Shown here piece after piece: positions 4,321-56,127 of a DNA stretch of 64,000 bases; position 1 is the stretch's first letter, and every line of letters starts with the position of its first letter. The stretch comes from an uncultured Clostridia bacterium (GTDB lineage: Bacteria; Bacillota; Clostridia; Christensenellales; Borkfalkiaceae), in NCBI GenBank assembly GCA_944368925.1, contig CALVXG010000010.1, positions 1 to 64,000 of the forward strand, given 5' to 3'. The notes beneath the pieces were generated by a model. It saw nothing but the letters and a program-made list of their open reading frames with translations. It did not search any database and had not been told where the DNA came from. The translations under genes and the position numbers were made by a program.

Positions 4321-5052
4321 ATGAATAAAACAGTTTTGCGCATCGAACATCTTACCAAGACTTACGCAAAAACCAAGCGCGCCGTGGACGATCTTTCCCT
4401 GGATGTATGTGCGGGGGATATTTACGGATTTATCGGACAGAACGGCGCGGGAAAAACAACAACCCTGCGCGCGGTGACAGGCATTCTGCCCTTTGATTCA
4501 GGCAGGATCGAAATTGACGGAATTTCCGTTCAGGACGATCCCGTCGCCTGCAAATCAATGATTGCCTATATTCCCGACAATCCGGATCTGTACGATTACC
4601 TTACGGGCATACAATATCTCAATTACATCGGCGATATATTCGGCGTCGAAAAAGAAATCCGACGTGAACGTATCGAAAAATACGCGGAAATGTTCCGCAT
4701 CAAAGGCGATCTCGGTTCTTTGATCGGCGCTTACTCTCACGGCATGAAACAAAAACTTGCTATCATAAGCGCACTTCTGCACGCGCCGAAGCTCATGATC
4801 CTCGACGAACCGTTTGTCGGTCTGGATCCCGAAGCCGCCTTCAAAATCAAGCAGGTTTTCCGCGAAATGTGCGAAAACGGAAGCGCCATCTTTTTCTCGA
4901 CCCACGTTCTGGACGTCGCGGAAAAATTGTGCAATAAAATTGCGATCATTAAAAACGGCAAACTTATCGCCTGCGGCGACATTGAAAGTGTTCGCGGCAA
5001 CGAAAGCCTGGAAGACGTGTTCATGGAGGTACTCGAAAGCCATGAAAAATAA
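4321..5052 (+). CDS. ABC transporter ATP-binding protein
   Basis: A 243-residue nucleotide-binding subunit. Walker A is GQNGAGKTT near residue 39, the signature is YSHGMKQKLAI near 139, and Walker B is LMILDEPFVGLD near 158, followed by a switch His in STHVLD. This matches exporters of the CcmA/YhaQ type that pair with a separate membrane subunit. GGAG lies 5 bases before the ATG. The downstream permease starts 11 bases before this stop. The cargo is unknown. Confidence 0.93.
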   Translation: MNKTVLRIEHLTKTYAKTKRAVDDLSLDVCAGDIYGFIGQNGAGKTTTLRAVTGILPFDSGRIEIDGISVQDDPVACKSMIAYIPDNPDLYDYLTGIQYLNYIGDIFGVEKEIRRERIEKYAEMFRIKGDLGSLIGAYSHGMKQKLAIISALLHAPKLMILDEPFVGLDPEAAFKIKQVFREMCENGSAIFFSTHVLDVAEKLCNKIAIIKNGKLIACGDIESVRGNESLEDVFMEVLESHEK

Positions 5053-6613
5053 ATGGCTGCCGATGACCAAAATCCAGCTCATGGGTTTGTTCGGCATCAA
5101 TAAGGCAAAAAATTCCGCCGACCCTGCAATAAAACGCAAAACAGCCGGCGGGCTTGCCGCTCTCGCAATCGTCGGAGCCGTCATGATTTTTTATATCGTC
5201 CTGATCGCCGTTTCTTTCTGCAAACAAGGCATCGGACAGCATCTCCCTGCTTTGACGATCGCGCTGACCTCCCTCATTACTTTGCTCTTTTCTCTGCTGT
5301 ACGGCTGCTCTTCCCTGTTCGCCATGAAAGATTACGATCTGGTCATGAGTATGCCCGTTACAAAGCGCGATATCCTGATCAGCCGACTGCTCTGCTCGTA
5401 CATTGCAAACCTCGCGTTTGCGCTCGGTGTCACCCTGCCCTGCCTCGTCGTTCTCTTCGCCATGGACGGGTTTTCCGCCGCCGTTCTCGCCGTGACGCTC
5501 GTCGGCGCCGTCTTCGCGCCGCTCGTACCCATGGCCATCGCAACCTTGATCAGCGCTTTGCTCACCGCCCTTACGGCAGGTTTCAAATATAAAAATTTAC
5601 TGCAAAGCCTGCTCGGCATCATCGTGTTTGCGGGTGCCATGGTTGCCAGCTTTTCCATTTCTTTCAGCGCAAACGCCGAACAGCAAATCGACATGAACGC
5701 CATGTTCCGCCTGCTCGTAATGAATATCTACCCGCCCGCTTTGCTCATCGAAATGACGCTGGACGGCGCAATTTGGGCGATTTTTGTATTCATCGGAGCT
5801 TCCGCACTGATCGCCGCGCTGTTTATCCTCATCCTGTCGCTGGGCTATCGGAAAATTCACGACGCATTGACCGCAAAGAGCGCAGGTTCCAAGTACAACG
5901 CCGAAAAAATACGCGCTTCGTCCGCTTTTGCCGCCCTCGTCAGACGCGAATTCAAGCGGCTGTTTACCTGCTCCGCCTACCTTTTGAACAGCTTGTCCGG
6001 CACCCTTTTGCTGCTGGTCGCCGGCATCGCGCTCCTGTTTGTTGACGTCCCGTCCGCTCTCGCGCAGATGCAGCTGCTGACCGATCAGACGGCGCGCCTG
6101 GTCTATGCGGGGTTCGGAATTCTGATTTTCTGCGCGGGCATGAGCTGTCCTTCCGCTTCCGCGCTGTCCCTCGAAGGCAGCAGCCGCGGCCAGCTCTTCG
6201 TTCTGCCCCTCTCCGCAAGAAAAATTCTGGCCGCCAAAGCCATGCCCGGATTTTTGATCAATACGGCCGCGGGCTGGTTTACTTCCGTCATTTTTGCCGT
6301 TAAAATCGGCGCGGGCCCTCTCGGTTGGATTACTTTGCTTGTCAGCGTTCCGCTGTTTTGCGCTTTCAGCGCACTCTTCGGCAGTTTTCTGAACGTGAAA
6401 TTCCCGAAATACGACTGGACAAACGAAATACAGGCCGTCAAACAGAGCATTCCCGTCATGATCGCCGTGTTCGGGAGCATGGTGCTCGGCTTCGCCGTCA
6501 TCCTGCTCGGACTGTTCCTCGGCTTTTGGATCGTCCTCGCGGCAGATATTCTCTGCATCGTCTGCTCCGCCGCCTTCTGGCTGCACTTCAAACGCGTAAA
6601 ACTTTTCGTTTAA
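5042..6613 (+). CDS. ABC transporter permease
   Basis: A 523-residue integral membrane protein with many hydrophobic segments, for example residues about 40-60, 72-100, 120-150, 155-185, 195-215 and several at the C-terminus. MSMPVTKRDILISRL resembles the conserved cytosolic stretch of large ABC-2-like permeases (YhaP/YthQ type). The ATG at 5042 overlaps the ATPase gene by 11 bases with GGAGG upstream; the ATG at 5063 is an alternative. Together they form a heterodimeric exporter of unknown substrate. A perfect terminator follows. Confidence 0.88.
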   Translation: MKNKWLPMTKIQLMGLFGINKAKNSADPAIKRKTAGGLAALAIVGAVMIFYIVLIAVSFCKQGIGQHLPALTIALTSLITLLFSLLYGCSSLFAMKDYDLVMSMPVTKRDILISRLLCSYIANLAFALGVTLPCLVVLFAMDGFSAAVLAVTLVGAVFAPLVPMAIATLISALLTALTAGFKYKNLLQSLLGIIVFAGAMVASFSISFSANAEQQIDMNAMFRLLVMNIYPPALLIEMTLDGAIWAIFVFIGASALIAALFILILSLGYRKIHDALTAKSAGSKYNAEKIRASSAFAALVRREFKRLFTCSAYLLNSLSGTLLLLVAGIALLFVDVPSALAQMQLLTDQTARLVYAGFGILIFCAGMSCPSASALSLEGSSRGQLFVLPLSARKILAAKAMPGFLINTAAGWFTSVIFAVKIGAGPLGWITLLVSVPLFCAFSALFGSFLNVKFPKYDWTNEIQAVKQSIPVMIAVFGSMVLGFAVILLGLFLGFWIVLAADILCIVCSAAFWLHFKRVKLFV

Positions 6614-53396: not shown

Positions 53397-53487
53397 GCAG
53401 AGATGTCTGAGCGGCCTAAGGAGCACGACTGGAAATCGTGTGTACGTCATAAGCGTACCATGGGTTCAAATCCCATTCTCTGCGCCA
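53397..53487 (+). tRNA. tRNA-Ser(GGA)
   Basis: A class II tRNA of 91 nt with encoded CCA. Acceptor GCAGAGA pairs with TCTCTGC, anticodon stem CACGA pairs with TCGTG, loop CTGGAAA, anticodon GGA, then a long variable arm (GTACG with CGTAC). Bases 53429-53487 are part of the attachment repeat of the integrated element, which therefore restores an intact tRNA gene. Confidence 0.95.
53429..53487. repeat. Left 59-bp attachment repeat, inside tRNA-Ser
   Basis: The sequence from the anticodon loop (CTGGAAATCG) to the CCA is repeated without mismatch at 56023-56081. It defines one end of a 2,594-bp unit. Confidence 0.95.
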
Positions 53488-53488
53488 A

Positions 53489-53516
53489 AAAAGCACCTTT
53501 TTCAGGTGCTTTTTCT
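53489..53516. terminator. Element-borne terminator after tRNA-Ser
   Basis: Arms 53489-53498 and 53504-53513 (AAAAGCACCT) with T-tails on both strands; it can end both tRNA-Ser and the integrase transcript. Confidence 0.88.
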
Positions 53517-53522
53517 TGTTTT

Positions 53523-54353
53523 TTACGGTTCTATGCGGAATTTTTCGTATTCGCTCTTCCGAAACTGTGTACTTGTATGCGTGTATATCCCCAGCGTTAC
53601 TTTTATGTCGCTATGCCCTGCAAGGCTTTGACAAACATTGACATTGATTCCGCACTCTGCGCAACGTGTTACAAAGGTATGCCGCAAATCGTGCAGCTTA
53701 TGGGTCGGGCAAAACCGCTTGAACGTTCGGCTTACGATACATTGTTTATACGGGAACACAAGCAGGCTTTCAGGGCATTGCGCTCTCTGTCTTTGGAGAA
53801 GTTCCCGAACGTGCGGGAGCATATCCAGACGGCGAAACGATGAAAGCGTTTTTGTGCCGCGTATCAGGATCGTGCCGCTTTCAAAGTCCACATCAGACCA
53901 ACGCAGGGCAAGAGCTTCGCAACGCCGTACACCCGTATAAAGGTAGAACTCAAAGAGATTGCGCATATAATGATTGCCGACAGCGCGGAGAAATTCTCTC
54001 TGCTCCGTAACGGTGAGAGCTTCGCCAAGTTTCGAGCGGTGCTTTATCGGTTCAGCCTTTTTCATGATGTCGCTTTCTATGTAGTCCAGTCGGAACGCCT
54101 TGTTCAGGCTGTTATTCAGGACATGAAAGGCATACTTCCGCATACGGGTAGATTGTATTGCCGCCAATGCTTTGTCGATTGTAAAAGCGTTGAGTTCGTC
54201 AAGGCGCATATCTTTGAGCCATTGCGGCAAGTGTATCCGTATCACTCTTTCTATGTTCTCCGCCGTGCTTTTCGATACGGTCGGGAGCTTGTAAATGTTG
54301 TACCAATCGGAGAGCCATTCTCCCAAGGTAAAACGTGCTTTCTGTTTTCTCAT
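53523..54353 (-). CDS. int: Tyrosine recombinase (phage-type integrase)
   Basis: A 276-residue site-specific recombinase. Residues 10-95 form the core-binding (SAM-like) domain. The catalytic domain shows Arg in YTGVRRCEALALRW near 141, a Lys in RGTKTLSS near 167, HxxR in LHDLRHTFVTRCAECG near 224, His in LAGHSDIKVTLGIYTH near 247 and the nucleophile Tyr in that same stretch. It is shorter than most phage integrases because the N-terminal arm-binding domain is absent. The gene lies next to the tRNA repeat, as usual. It is followed by no excisionase. Confidence 0.95.
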   Translation of the reverse strand: MRKQKARFTLGEWLSDWYNIYKLPTVSKSTAENIERVIRIHLPQWLKDMRLDELNAFTIDKALAAIQSTRMRKYAFHVLNNSLNKAFRLDYIESDIMKKAEPIKHRSKLGEALTVTEQREFLRAVGNHYMRNLFEFYLYTGVRRCEALALRWSDVDFESGTILIRGTKTLSSFRRLDMLPHVRELLQRQRAQCPESLLVFPYKQCIVSRTFKRFCPTHKLHDLRHTFVTRCAECGINVNVCQSLAGHSDIKVTLGIYTHTSTQFRKSEYEKFRIEP

Positions 54354-54498
54354 AAGCCTACCTACAAATTAATACCGAGCCAACCATAAGCCAACCGTCC
54401 GCGGGGCGTGCTAATCACTCAAACGCCGTTGGGCTTTGTTGCGCGGTTCGAAATTACAAACAACTCTCTCCGACTATCGCCGAACACGCTTTGGCTTT

Positions 54499-55299
54499 TT
54501 AATGCGGCAATGGGACGGGCGTGAACTCATCGCACCAGAGCGGCGGGAAACACCTGCTTTCAAGCGGTTTTCGGAAGTCTGACAGGGACAGCGGAGCGTC
54601 CAAAATGAATTGCATATAGTTCACTGTTCCGTAGTATTCACTTTCAAAAGAGGACGAGCAAGCAACGCGTTTGACAGTCATTTCCGCAAGTACTTTTTCA
54701 ATCGTTTCGGAATCTGTGGTCGTCTGCGGGGCTGTCAGATTGCGGGACATGAAGAAACACTTCTCACCTGCAAGCCTTTCGTCCAGATTGTCTTTTGTCA
54801 TGTACTTTGTTATGTAAGCGCCGATATTGTCAACGTTGTCAATGCGGTTGATTTTGACAAAGCCATTTCCCCAGATTTCAGCCAGCCGTTCTTTCGGAAC
54901 ATACGAGCAATTCATCAGAAGATGATAATGGACTGCGCCGCGTTCCTGAAACTCCGGAACGGCAATATACTGCAACTTTGTATGAAGCTGATAGGACAGC
55001 CGCCGCATGAAGTCCGTAAACTGCTTGTTTGCTTTTTTCAGGTTCGTTACATTATCGGCAAAAGTGAGCGTTACAAACTTTGAGCGATTGGAAAAATTAG
55101 CGTTCGCATATCGTCGTACTTTTTGGCGAGCGCGGGAAGCGGTCTTTTCTCTGTTCTGTCGTTTCTGTTCGTCCGTGGTAGTGGTTTGTCCAGCTCTACC
55201 GATGCGATTACAGCGCAAAGGCACAACGGGACTTTCGTACTCGTAGAGTTCGACATTATTCCCAGATACTATTAACTTTTGCGTGTAACATTTTCGCAT
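54499..55299 (-). CDS. Rolling-circle replication initiator (HUH Rep)
   Basis: A 266-residue replication-associated protein of the G2P/ORF2-like HUH endonuclease group. Motif 1 is SKFVTLTFADN near residue 72, motif 2 is RGAVHYHLLMN near 119 with the HYH metal site, and the catalytic Tyr is in IGAYITKYMTK near 158. Such proteins nick the double-strand origin and start rolling-circle copying. The N-terminal third is basic and Arg/Lys-rich. It precedes the integrase by 145 bases. Presence of a Rep suggests a free circular stage. Confidence 0.9.
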   Translation of the reverse strand: MRKCYTQKLIVSGNNVELYEYESPVVPLRCNRIGRAGQTTTTDEQKRQNREKTASRARQKVRRYANANFSNRSKFVTLTFADNVTNLKKANKQFTDFMRRLSYQLHTKLQYIAVPEFQERGAVHYHLLMNCSYVPKERLAEIWGNGFVKINRIDNVDNIGAYITKYMTKDNLDERLAGEKCFFMSRNLTAPQTTTDSETIEKVLAEMTVKRVACSSSFESEYYGTVNYMQFILDAPLSLSDFRKPLESRCFPPLWCDEFTPVPLPH

Positions 55300-55490
55300 T
55301 AAGAATACCTTTAATCAAGTCAAGTCGTGCGGCGGAACGCCGCCCCCCGCTCCCCCATGTTCGGACCGGGGGCGGCAGTTCCCTGCCGTCCGCGTAAAGT
55401 AAAAGCCCCTACACGGGACAGGTGCAAGGGCTTAAACAGATTTAGCGGTAGACTAAACATATTGAATTGTAGACATAGCCTGTCCCGCTA
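55300..55490. promoter_or_regulatory. Rep leader with hairpins, possible dso
   Basis: No gene. GGCAG/CTGCC (near 55377-55390), GCGGCGGAACGCCGC near 55331, AAGCCC/GGGCTT (55408-55433) and CGGGACAGG/CCTGTCCCG (55418 and 55479 region) can all form stems. The third resembles an attenuator on the minus strand. One of them may hold the Rep nick site; I cannot tell which. Confidence 0.45.
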
Positions 55491-55583
55491 TCTCATTACG
55501 TGATATATTATATCATCACATTTTGAGATAGTCAAGACTATTTTTAAAACTTTCTTGATTTTTTTCTCATTTTGAGATAAAAT
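55490..55583. promoter_or_regulatory. Divergent control region with XRE operators
   Basis: Plus-strand promoter TTGATT (55555-55560) and TAAAAT (55578-55583) have a 17-base spacer that contains the palindrome TCTCA-TTT-TGAGA (55565-55577), so a bound repressor would block the xre promoter. Towards rep, TATCTCA (55490-55496) and TGAGATA (55524-55530) flank the perfect palindrome TGATATATTATATCA (55501-55515). Confidence 0.75.
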
Positions 55584-55611
55584 TTTATAAAACGACATAG
55601 GGGAGTCAGTT

Positions 55612-56004
55612 ATGTACAATAAATTTGCCGAATGCCTTACCGCCCTAATGAAAGAGCGGAACATTACACAATCACATCTTGCAGAGTGCCTAAAAGTGAA
55701 GCAGAACACTATCAGCCAATGGGCAAAAGGCAAACGCGAACCCGATTTTGATATGCTGATAAAAATCTGTATTTTGTTTGATACTAATCCTACCGACATT
55801 CTGAATTATCCCGCCGTAAAGAAACAAATAAAATATGGTTTTTTGCGTGATGTGGTCGGCAATGACAAACAATTTCAGAAAGAACAGAGAGCTCTATCAG
55901 ATGAAATGTTTGAACAAGGTATGCACCCTGTCGATATGCAATTAGAGTGCGAGAAACTTTACGAACAATATTATAAAGCGTACAAAGAGAAGTTTGGTTT
56001 TTAA
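55612..56004 (+). CDS. XRE-family repressor of the element
   Basis: A 130-residue regulator. Residues 8-62 form a Cro/C1-type HTH: ITQSHLAECLKVKQNTISQW near 19-38 and DFDMLIKICILFDTNPTDI near 45-63. The C-terminal half (QKEQRALSDEMFEQGMHPVD near 90) is helical and probably makes dimers. GGGGAG lies 6 bases before the ATG. It is transcribed divergently from rep; TCTCA-N3-TGAGA sites in its own promoter and just after its stop suggest a lysogeny-like switch. Confidence 0.92.
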   Translation: MYNKFAECLTALMKERNITQSHLAECLKVKQNTISQWAKGKREPDFDMLIKICILFDTNPTDILNYPAVKKQIKYGFLRDVVGNDKQFQKEQRALSDEMFEQGMHPVDMQLECEKLYEQYYKAYKEKFGF

Positions 56005-56005
56005 T

Positions 56006-56020
56006 ATCTCAATTTGAGAT
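56006..56020. promoter_or_regulatory. Operator-like palindrome beside the right repeat
   Basis: ATCTCA-ATT-TGAGAT begins 2 bases after the xre stop and ends 3 bases before the right attachment repeat. It has the same TCTCA-N3-TGAGA core as the xre promoter operator. Confidence 0.75.
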
Positions 56021-56022
56021 GT

Positions 56023-56081
56023 CTGGAAATCGTGTGTACGTCATAAGCGTACCATGGGTTCAAATCCCATTCTCTGCGCCA
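56023..56081. repeat. Right 59-bp attachment repeat (tRNA-Ser fragment)
   Basis: An exact copy of 53429-53487. It is the original 3' half of the chromosomal tRNA-Ser gene, now cut off from its 5' half. Confidence 0.95.
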
Positions 56082-56087
56082 TACGTG

Positions 56088-56127
56088 AATAATACGAACT
56101 CTCAATGGGAGTCCGTATTATTTTTTT
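56088..56127 (+). terminator. Native-type tRNA-Ser terminator, displaced
   Basis: AATAATACG (56088-56096) pairs with CGTATTATT (56114-56122), with an inner ACTC/GAGT pair, followed by T7. It directly follows the right repeat. Confidence 0.88.

What the first reader, a model, noticed from the sequence alone, without database searches (positions are those of the whole stretch)
53429..56081. A 2,594-bp integrative element with only integrase, HUH Rep and an XRE repressor
Perfect 59-bp repeats of the tRNA-Ser 3' half bound a unit with three genes. Seen directly: the repeats, the intact tRNA rebuilt at the left end, a terminator at each side of the junctions, and catalytic motifs in Int and Rep. 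Most integrative elements also carry mobilisation, cargo or phage genes; this one has none. It may be a minimal self-replicating, integrating plasmid or a satellite that borrows transfer functions. This is my best candidate for an undescribed system.
Basis: partly seen in the sequence, partly recalled or inferred. Interest (0 to 1): 0.8.

Follow-up and report, generated by a model that had tools for sequence, protein, structure and literature searches.

The report
Tiny integrating plasmid with RNA switch
A 2.6-kilobase mobile DNA parasite sits in a serine tRNA gene of a bacterial genome with only an integrase, a rolling-circle replication gene and a repressor; sister elements in eleven related species share what looks like an RNA on/off switch in front of the replication gene.

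Summary
Perfect 59-bp repeats of the tRNA-Ser(GGA) 3' half (53429-53487, 56023-56081) bound a 2,594-bp unit with a tyrosine integrase, an HUH Rep (PF23343) and an XRE repressor. It is one of a family: 13 of 398 genomes in its taxonomic family (own included) carry a close Rep, and ten complete elements of 2.45-3.13 kb lie between tRNA-Ser repeats. A related species has the empty site; two species share a 97%-identical element beside 77%-identical chromosome. So it moves.

Best reading: a minimal integrating rolling-circle plasmid that needs a helper for transfer. Related Reps and a similar origin-like motif occur in a 1.5-kb plasmid and in Zot-bearing, inovirus-like contigs. It is a new variant of a known kind (IMEs, AICEs, RCR plasmids), not a new category.

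The unexpected part: in 12 of 12 intact family leaders the rep transcript begins with a box complementary to the loop of a downstream terminator. Eleven box sequences keep the complementarity (mean run 7.75 bp against 4.44 +/- 0.25 in shuffles). I read it as a co-transcriptional attenuator, possibly setting copy number and incompatibility. Circle, nicking, attenuation and helper are untested.

The parts
53397..53487 (+). tRNA-Ser(GGA), intact; its 3' 59 bp (53429-53487) are the left att repeat
   Evidence: ARAGORN; repeat D1
53490..53514 (.). terminator-like hairpin between the tRNA and the end of int
   Evidence: seen directly in the sequence
53523..54353 (-). tyrosine recombinase (integrase), 276 aa; R143, H221, R224 and H247 invariant in the 6-row Int alignment
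   Evidence: PF00589 1.2e-20, phrog_1 7.4e-56; alignment A2
54499..55299 (-). HUH Rep, 266 aa; H124-Y-H126 and Y162/Y166 motifs
   Evidence: PF23343 1.8e-24; invariant columns in 14 Reps; AlphaFold model pLDDT 84, viral ORF2/G2P Reps among the best fold matches
55304..55320 (-). candidate double-strand origin, ACTTGATTAAAGGTATT on the minus strand, directly before rep
   Evidence: position checked; similar motif before rep in sister elements, pGTG5 and inovirus-like contigs
55394..55512 (-). rep leader taken from the -10 box to past the terminator; attenuator candidate
55479..55487 (-). box A (CGGGACAGG), near the 5' end of the predicted transcript
   Evidence: 9-bp Watson-Crick match to the terminator loop
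55403..55433 (-). terminator hairpin; its loop region (55414-55422, CCTGTCCCG) is box A'
55507..55535 (-). promoter PR, TTGACT-17-TATAAT, reading into the leader, rep and int
   Evidence: comparable promoters in 12 of 12 leaders
55516..55530 (.). operator-like repeat overlapping PR
   Evidence: repeat family D2
55565..55579 (.). operator-like repeat between PR and the XRE start
   Evidence: repeat family D2
55612..56004 (+). XRE/Cro-CI repressor, 130 aa, divergent from rep-int
   Evidence: HTH_26 9.2e-12; RstR-like below cut-off, 37.7 of 80 bits
56007..56021 (.). third operator-like repeat, beside the right att site
   Evidence: repeat family D2, 80%
56023..56081 (+). right att repeat (59-bp tRNA-Ser fragment)

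Best explanation
It is a minimal integrating rolling-circle plasmid, one member of a mobile family. Int integrates the circle into the anticodon-to-3' half of tRNA-Ser and rebuilds the tRNA (shown by anatomy and an empty site). When repression by XRE lifts, Int excises the circle and Rep nicks the origin before rep and replicates it by rolling circle (inferred from families and motifs). Rep output is gated twice. XRE represses PR (inferred from operator-like repeats). The leader then chooses between pairing A:A', which blocks the terminator hairpin, and forming the terminator. The complementarity and its variation between elements are shown; termination itself is predicted. My preferred mechanism is that leader RNAs already terminated, with A' exposed in their loop, bind box A of new transcripts and push them to terminate, so copy number is sensed and each A/A' pair defines an incompatibility group (inferred). 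Transfer to new cells needs a helper, most likely a resident conjugative system using Rep and its origin as relaxase and oriT (inferred, about 45%; inovirus packaging about 25%).
For: Repeats, tRNA and genes. Family: close Rep in 13 of 398 genomes. Of 14 loci examined, 11 have flanking repeats (22-61 bp; spacing 2450-3133 bp), 10 at tRNA-Ser and one at tRNA-Glu; the other three reach contig ends. XRE in 10 of 10 further elements tested. Empty site L101: tRNA-Ser runs straight into the same right flank. L034/L035: 97.0% identity inside the element against 76.7% in 0.9 kb of adjoining chromosome. Related Rep and origin-like motif in 1.5-kb plasmid pGTG5 and in Zot-bearing contigs. Leader: A:loop complementarity in 12 of 12, mean Watson-Crick run 7.75 against 4.44 +/- 0.25, highest of 500 shuffle means 5.25. 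Nascent folds pair 0.88 of A' with the 5' end against 0.26 +/- 0.07. L034 and L035 have identical Reps, yet A and A' both differ. In 398 genomes the 12 best hits of a model of the leader's 3' part are the 12 elements it was built from. PR in 12 of 12.
Against: No reads, so no attP junction, copy number or RNA was seen for this element. In L037 the strict Watson-Crick run is only 5 (40.6% of its shuffles reach it); it needs a G-U pair; L034 has 6 (4.8%). In the cross test L044's loop matches L043's leader better than its own (8 against 7) and L034's matches two others equally. The A/A' difference between L034 and L035 lies in a stretch (about 200-900) that is 77-95% identical per 100-column block while most of the rest is nearly identical, so the whole segment may have come in by recombination. 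In L035 and L042 the A:A' form is the full-length minimum fold; L040/L041 pair only 0.43 of A'. Operator dyads are only modestly above chance (15 against 7.4 +/- 2.6, shuffle maximum 15). Coupling protein in 4 of 13 carriers, MobT/Rep_trans in 0 of 13. The pair L041/L043 shows no clear excess of element identity (90.1% ungapped, 80.4% with gaps, against 84.1% flank ungapped).
Confidence: 0.7

Rival explanations
1. It is a filamentous-phage (inovirus) satellite: Rep makes single-stranded circles that a helper inovirus packages and exports.
For: Contigs L108 and L111 carry Reps 46% and 41% identical with a similar origin-like motif and a Zot protein (PF05707 1.1e-19 and 7.4e-11); bajarodino virus 41, filed under Inoviridae with an annotated Zot, has a 42% identical Rep. 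Zot hits in 59 of 398 family genomes. The XRE matches the phage RstR model below its cut-off.
Against: Zot hits in 4 of 13 carriers (one of them weak, G001) and none in the window's genome. Elements share no DNA with 15 Zot-bearing loci beyond two matches of 43 and 51 bp; no Rep match and no hit to the origin pattern used in those loci. No known packaging signal to test.
Confidence: 0.2
2. It is an integrative and mobilizable element (IME) in the strict sense: the Rep is first of all a relaxase, and replication is secondary.
For: 118 of 144 streptococcal IMEs use relaxases related to RCR initiators, 35 of them without a coupling protein (PMC5357655, PMC5704250, passages). RCR plasmid Reps can act as relaxases with ICEBs1 (PMC5714925, passage). 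Coupling protein in the window's own genome.
Against: The two best plasmid matches to Rep are in 1.5-2.2-kb plasmids typed non-mobilizable; coupling protein in only 4 of 13 carriers, MobT/Rep_trans in none.
Confidence: 0.3
3. The leader is an attenuator of the pIP501 kind, controlled by an antisense RNA from the opposite strand; box A only mimics that RNA's loop.
For: pIP501 pairs a repressor (CopR) with antisense-induced attenuation in the rep leader (PMC4981023, passages), the same logic as XRE plus leader.
Against: No promoter-like match at a shared position on the opposite strand of the 12 leaders, while PR is near consensus in all 12; a simple consensus scan can miss promoters. It does not explain why box A is kept complementary in cis.
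Confidence: 0.2
4. A and A' are a DNA-level inverted repeat (protein-binding site or single-strand origin), not an RNA switch.
For: An inverted repeat also folds in single-stranded replication DNA; proximity to rep.
Against: A starts 21-39 nt after the start of the -10 box and A' is always the loop of a hairpin followed by T's. A and A' differ together between L034 and L035 although Rep is identical and the XREs are close. Same strand layout in all 12.
Confidence: 0.15
5. A decayed prophage or IME, no longer mobile.
For: Remnants exist: L194 (int with only a 15-residue match to the Rep tail), L038 (Rep lacking its first 78 residues).
Against: Int and Rep are open, with an XRE, in 11 complete elements of similar size; recent transfer and an empty site.
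Confidence: 0.05

Closest known systems
Small cryptic rolling-circle plasmids of Bacillales (pGTG5 1,540 bp; pHT926 1,786 bp; pEF60063-3 2,180 bp)
   Same: Rep 36-48% identical; motif ACTTGATTATAG just before rep in pGTG5; very few genes
   Different: No integrase is annotated; pGTG5's second gene is hypothetical with a sub-threshold ribbon-helix-helix match, so a repressor there is not excluded
Streptococcal IMEs with RCR-initiator relaxases (PF02486/MobT, PF01719, PHA00330; PMC5357655, PMC5704250)
   Same: Integrase plus RCR-type initiator, site-specific insertion, some lack a coupling protein
   Different: Most IMEs are 5-15 kb and nearly all carry cargo (PMC5704250 passage, which also names the 1.7-kb MTnSag1 and cargo-free Tn5520); here 2.45-3.13 kb with no recognised cargo. 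PHA00330 could not be tested here
Actinomycete ICEs (AICEs, pSAM2 type; PMC3218068)
   Same: Integrate by Int, replicate by rolling circle via Rep; weak RepSA similarity (31 of 34 bits)
   Different: AICEs were called there by Int + Rep + FtsK-type Tra; no Tra here
XRE/Rep/Int cassettes in Enterococcus faecium (pC4-1-optrA region, L008) and a human-gut phage record (L007)
   Same: Divergent XRE-like gene, then a small ORF, Rep, (HTH in L008), integrase-like ORF
   Different: Rep 34-36%; Int of L008 24%; no long flanking repeat found; leader architecture not found by the scan
pIP501 replication control (CopR + RNAIII attenuation; PMC4981023)
   Same: Repressor at the rep promoter plus premature termination in the rep leader
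   Different: No conserved antisense promoter seen; instead a same-strand box complementary to the terminator loop; pIP501 replicates by theta

Membership tests
REP_ORF2-G2P rolling-circle replicons | HUH Rep of PF23343 | tested here: met
   86.3 bits against a cut-off of 27.8; fold matches to viral ORF2/G2P Reps
REP_ORF2-G2P rolling-circle replicons | double-strand origin nicked by Rep | tested here: inconclusive
   similar motif before rep in elements, a plasmid and viral contigs; nicking not testable
Integrative element of the tRNA/tyrosine-integrase class | tRNA 3'-end repeats, intact tRNA, int next to one end, empty site in a relative | tested here: met
IME | own relaxase/oriT used with a foreign conjugation pore | tested here: inconclusive
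   Rep could serve; coupling protein in 4 of 13 carriers; transfer not testable
AICE | FtsK/SpoIIIE-type Tra with Int and Rep | tested here: not met
   three genes only; 16 other ORFs without Pfam match
Inovirus (prophage) | Zot/pI morphogenesis gene | tested here: not met
   none in the element; no Zot hit in G000
Inovirus satellite | packaging in helper particles | not testable with these tools
   no reads or particles; Zot in 4 of 13 carriers
pIP501-type attenuation | antisense RNA promoter opposite the leader | tested here: inconclusive
   no promoter-like match at a shared position in 12 leaders, by a simple consensus scan only
Known Rfam leader/attenuator | match to an Rfam family | tested here: not met
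   only a chance-level hit (MIR5048, 14 of 160 bits, E 3.1) touches the leader

The most novel reading that the evidence does not exclude
A family of about 2.5-3 kb integrating replicons controls Rep with a same-strand RNA: terminated leader RNAs act in trans on new leaders through a hypervariable box/loop pair, giving copy-number feedback and an immunity or incompatibility specificity that diversifies independently of the proteins, without any antisense gene.
Probability: 0.33. Interest if true: 0.72.

Novelty: new variant of a known kind. Interest (0 to 1): 0.56.

Why it matters
It shows how little an integrating, apparently self-replicating element needs (three genes in 2.45-3.1 kb; the review seen names one smaller IME, MTnSag1, 1.7 kb), and it gives a natural series of related elements with full boundaries. 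The leader is a compact, testable RNA device whose specificity box has diversified while base pairing was kept. If it works in trans, plasmid copy control needs neither an antisense promoter nor extra proteins. The related Rep and origin-like motif also link small plasmids, inoviruses and integrative elements.

Tried and rejected
Lone curiosity: rejected by the relatives. Known Rfam RNA: none. Resident inovirus as obvious helper: not supported, Zot in 4 of 13 carriers and not in the own genome. Leader elsewhere: 61 of 398 genomes have a model hit at E <= 0.01; the 12 best (46.5-61.5 bits) are the training elements, which match by construction. Of the other hits I looked at three (G024 42.6, G349 38.8, G091 38.5 bits): no Rep or Int match nearby, and G024 looks like an ordinary terminator. 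Antisense promoter: none at a shared position. Rep tree: element Reps form two supported clades (genus g1, 6 rows, 99/99; g4, 5 rows, 100/99), but their relation to plasmids and inoviruses is unresolved. Order-wide search at E <= 1e-20: 2 of 396 genomes, own and G531, probably the genome of L005. A first attempt to force A:A' in folding did not apply the constraint; those 'enforced' values are void and one search replaces them. Foldseek against PDB gave no match at E <= 0.001. Viral contigs searched with the single Rep: none; with an alignment: 35 loci. Operator dyads: weak statistics. The blind scan covered 1,276,742 strand-bases of loci then held (some stored twice), recovered 10 of the 12 leaders (misses L034, L037) and gave 6 other places. 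What the 11 distant Rep places (27-36%) are was not determined.
Full report
OBSERVATION. The window holds perfect 59-bp repeats at 53429-53487 and 56023-56081. The left copy is the 3' half of an intact tRNA-Ser(GGA) at 53397-53487; ARAGORN finds no tRNA at the right copy. Between them lie Int (53523-54353, minus), Rep (54499-55299, minus) and XRE (55612-56004, plus), with Pfam E-values 1.2e-20, 1.8e-24 and 9.2e-12. The 16 other ORFs of 40 aa or more wholly inside have no Pfam match at E <= 0.01. Rep belongs to PF23343, 'Replication-associated protein ORF2/G2P'. In 14 aligned Reps H124, H126, Y162, K165, Y166 and K169 are invariant, the HUH and Y-xxx-Y pattern (motif naming recalled). The AlphaFold model (pLDDT 84) has viral ORF2/G2P Reps among its best fold matches; PDB gave none at E <= 0.001.

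IT IS A FAMILY. A scan of GTDB contigs gave four Rep relatives. In 398 genomes of the same taxonomic family, 23 have a Rep match at E <= 1e-10: 13 (own included) with a close Rep (47-100%), and 11 places with distant ones (27-36%), one genome having both. I examined boundaries in 14 loci: the window, 12 other family loci and L005, a more distant relative. Eleven have flanking direct repeats of 22-61 bp with start-to-start spacing 2450-3133 bp: ten at tRNA-Ser (GGA or CGA), one (L005) at tRNA-Glu. The other three (L038, L039, L044) reach contig ends. The third gene is an XRE protein in 10 of 10 further elements tested. Some members add one small ORF between leader and rep (L033, L034, L035, L037).

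IT MOVES. In G018 the same tRNA-Ser, below the same upstream gene, runs straight into the sequence that follows the window's right repeat: an empty site. The element is patchy: close Rep in 7 of 40 genomes of the genus, and Int at 65% identity or more in 9 of 40, of which G027 is a remnant and G013 is cut by a contig end. Two species, G001 and G017, carry elements 97.0% identical inside while 0.9 kb of adjoining chromosome is 76.7% identical. A second pair, L041/L043, gives no clear signal (90.1% ungapped, 80.4% with gaps, against 84.1% ungapped in the flank).

REPLICON. The best plasmid matches to Rep are in 1.5-2.2-kb Bacillales plasmids (46.5% pGTG5, 48.1% pEF60063-3); the best viral-contig match is L108 (46%). 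L108 and L111 also encode Zot (1.1e-19 and 7.4e-11). Directly before rep a motif of the type TTAACTTGATTAAAGGTATT recurs in the family elements, in pGTG5 as ACTTGATTATAG and in five of the 35 viral contigs as ACTTGATTATA (L108, L110, L111, L112, L116). I take it as the double-strand origin. The Rep tree does not resolve whether elements descend from plasmids or phages.

THE LEADER. Rep and Int are read from a near-consensus promoter (0-3 mismatches, spacer 16-17) in 12 of 12 leaders. The predicted transcript opens with box A and continues to a GC-rich hairpin followed by T's. The loop of that hairpin, A', is complementary to A in 12 of 12; there are 11 different box sequences among the 12. The strict Watson-Crick run averages 7.75 against 4.44 +/- 0.25 when the upstream part is shuffled (highest of 500 means 5.25). 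Weak cases: L037 (run 5, reached by 40.6% of its shuffles) and L034 (run 6, 4.8%); in the cross test L044's loop matches L043's leader better than its own, and L034's matches two others equally. Folding the transcript only as far as A' pairs on average 0.88 of A' with the 5' end, against 0.26 +/- 0.07 with shuffled upstream (L040 and L041 only 0.43). In the full leader the minimum fold beats the A:A' form by 0.8-7.5 kcal/mol in ten; in L035 and L042 the A:A' form is the minimum. Because A' is the whole loop, I infer that a full A:A' helix and the terminator exclude each other. L034 and L035 have identical Rep proteins and close XREs, yet A and A' both differ, which speaks against a binding site for either protein; but the difference lies in a stretch of lower identity that may have been exchanged as a block. 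A blind scan of 1,276,742 strand-bases recovered 10 of 12 leaders and gave 6 other places. A covariance model of the leader's 3' part ranks its 12 training elements first in 398 genomes (46.5-61.5 bits); 61 genomes have some hit at E <= 0.01, and the three others that I inspected (42.6, 38.8, 38.5 bits) have no Rep or Int nearby. Rfam has no match beyond chance level.

HOW IT WORKS. Shown: boundaries, rebuilt tRNA, empty site, mobility, gene families, leader complementarity. Inferred: XRE at operator-like repeats (55516-55530 overlaps PR; 55565-55579; 56007-56021) keeps PR shut; derepression gives Rep and Int, excision and rolling-circle copies; the leader then limits Rep. I propose that finished leader RNAs expose A' and capture box A of new transcripts, so that the terminator forms. 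This would make copy control and specificity lie in one RNA pair. The antisense alternative known from pIP501 (PMC4981023, passages) has no promoter candidate at a shared position here.

TRANSFER. No transfer gene was recognised. RCR plasmid Reps can act as relaxases with ICEBs1 (PMC5714925, passage). A coupling protein is found in 4 of 13 carriers, the window's genome included, MobT/Rep_trans in 0 of 13, and Zot in 4 of 13, not in the window's genome. Neither helper is established. [quoted passage not shown] the paper itself was not held).

NOVELTY. Integrase plus RCR-type initiator is a known combination (AICEs, PMC3218068; streptococcal IMEs, PMC5357655 and PMC5704250; passages seen). The listings showed no description of this family or leader, which is limited to the open-access library. 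I rate it a new variant of a known kind; the leader is what a specialist would not expect.

Noticed in passing
L195 (G000:C31, 6026 bp, the window's own genome): A second, larger Int-Rep-XRE element: Int 5013-5930 (46% to the window's), Rep 450-1379 (PF23343 9.6e-12), XRE 1642-1938. A 77-bp repeat at 33-109 and 5950-6026 looks like a tRNA 3' half plus the element's start; the right copy, after int, would then be an attP-like junction (circle or tandem in the assembly).
   Followed up: partly
L102 (G006:C103), beside tRNA-Ser(GGA) at the site matching the window's: Two tandem 206-bp units (93% identical, no gene seen), each ending in about 21 nt of the tRNA 3' end, between tRNA and right flank; a partial match in L106 (G003), and an unlike stretch of about 206 bp with a tRNA fragment beside the element in L036. 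Reminiscent of E. coli rtT repeats (recalled).
   Followed up: partly
window 56082-56126 and genus genomes: A 45-bp terminator-like hairpin (AATAATACGAACTC...) recurs at several places in genomes of this genus, the window's included.
   Followed up: no
L045-L055: Eleven places with distant Reps (27-36%) form a separate clade in the same taxonomic family; their element type was not determined.
   Followed up: no
L194 (G027:C89) and L038 (G026:C2): Remnants: int beside tRNA-Ser(CGA) with only a 15-residue match to the Rep tail; and a Rep lacking its first 78 residues.
   Followed up: partly
L033, L034, L035, L037 between leader and rep: One extra small ORF (93-133 aa), similar by eye in L033-L035 and different in L037: possible cargo or accessory replication gene.
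   Followed up: no
L008 (Enterococcus faecium pC4-1-optrA region) and L007 (human gut phage record MT839696): Similar layout: divergent XRE-like gene, small ORF, Rep, (HTH in L008), integrase-like ORF.
   Followed up: partly
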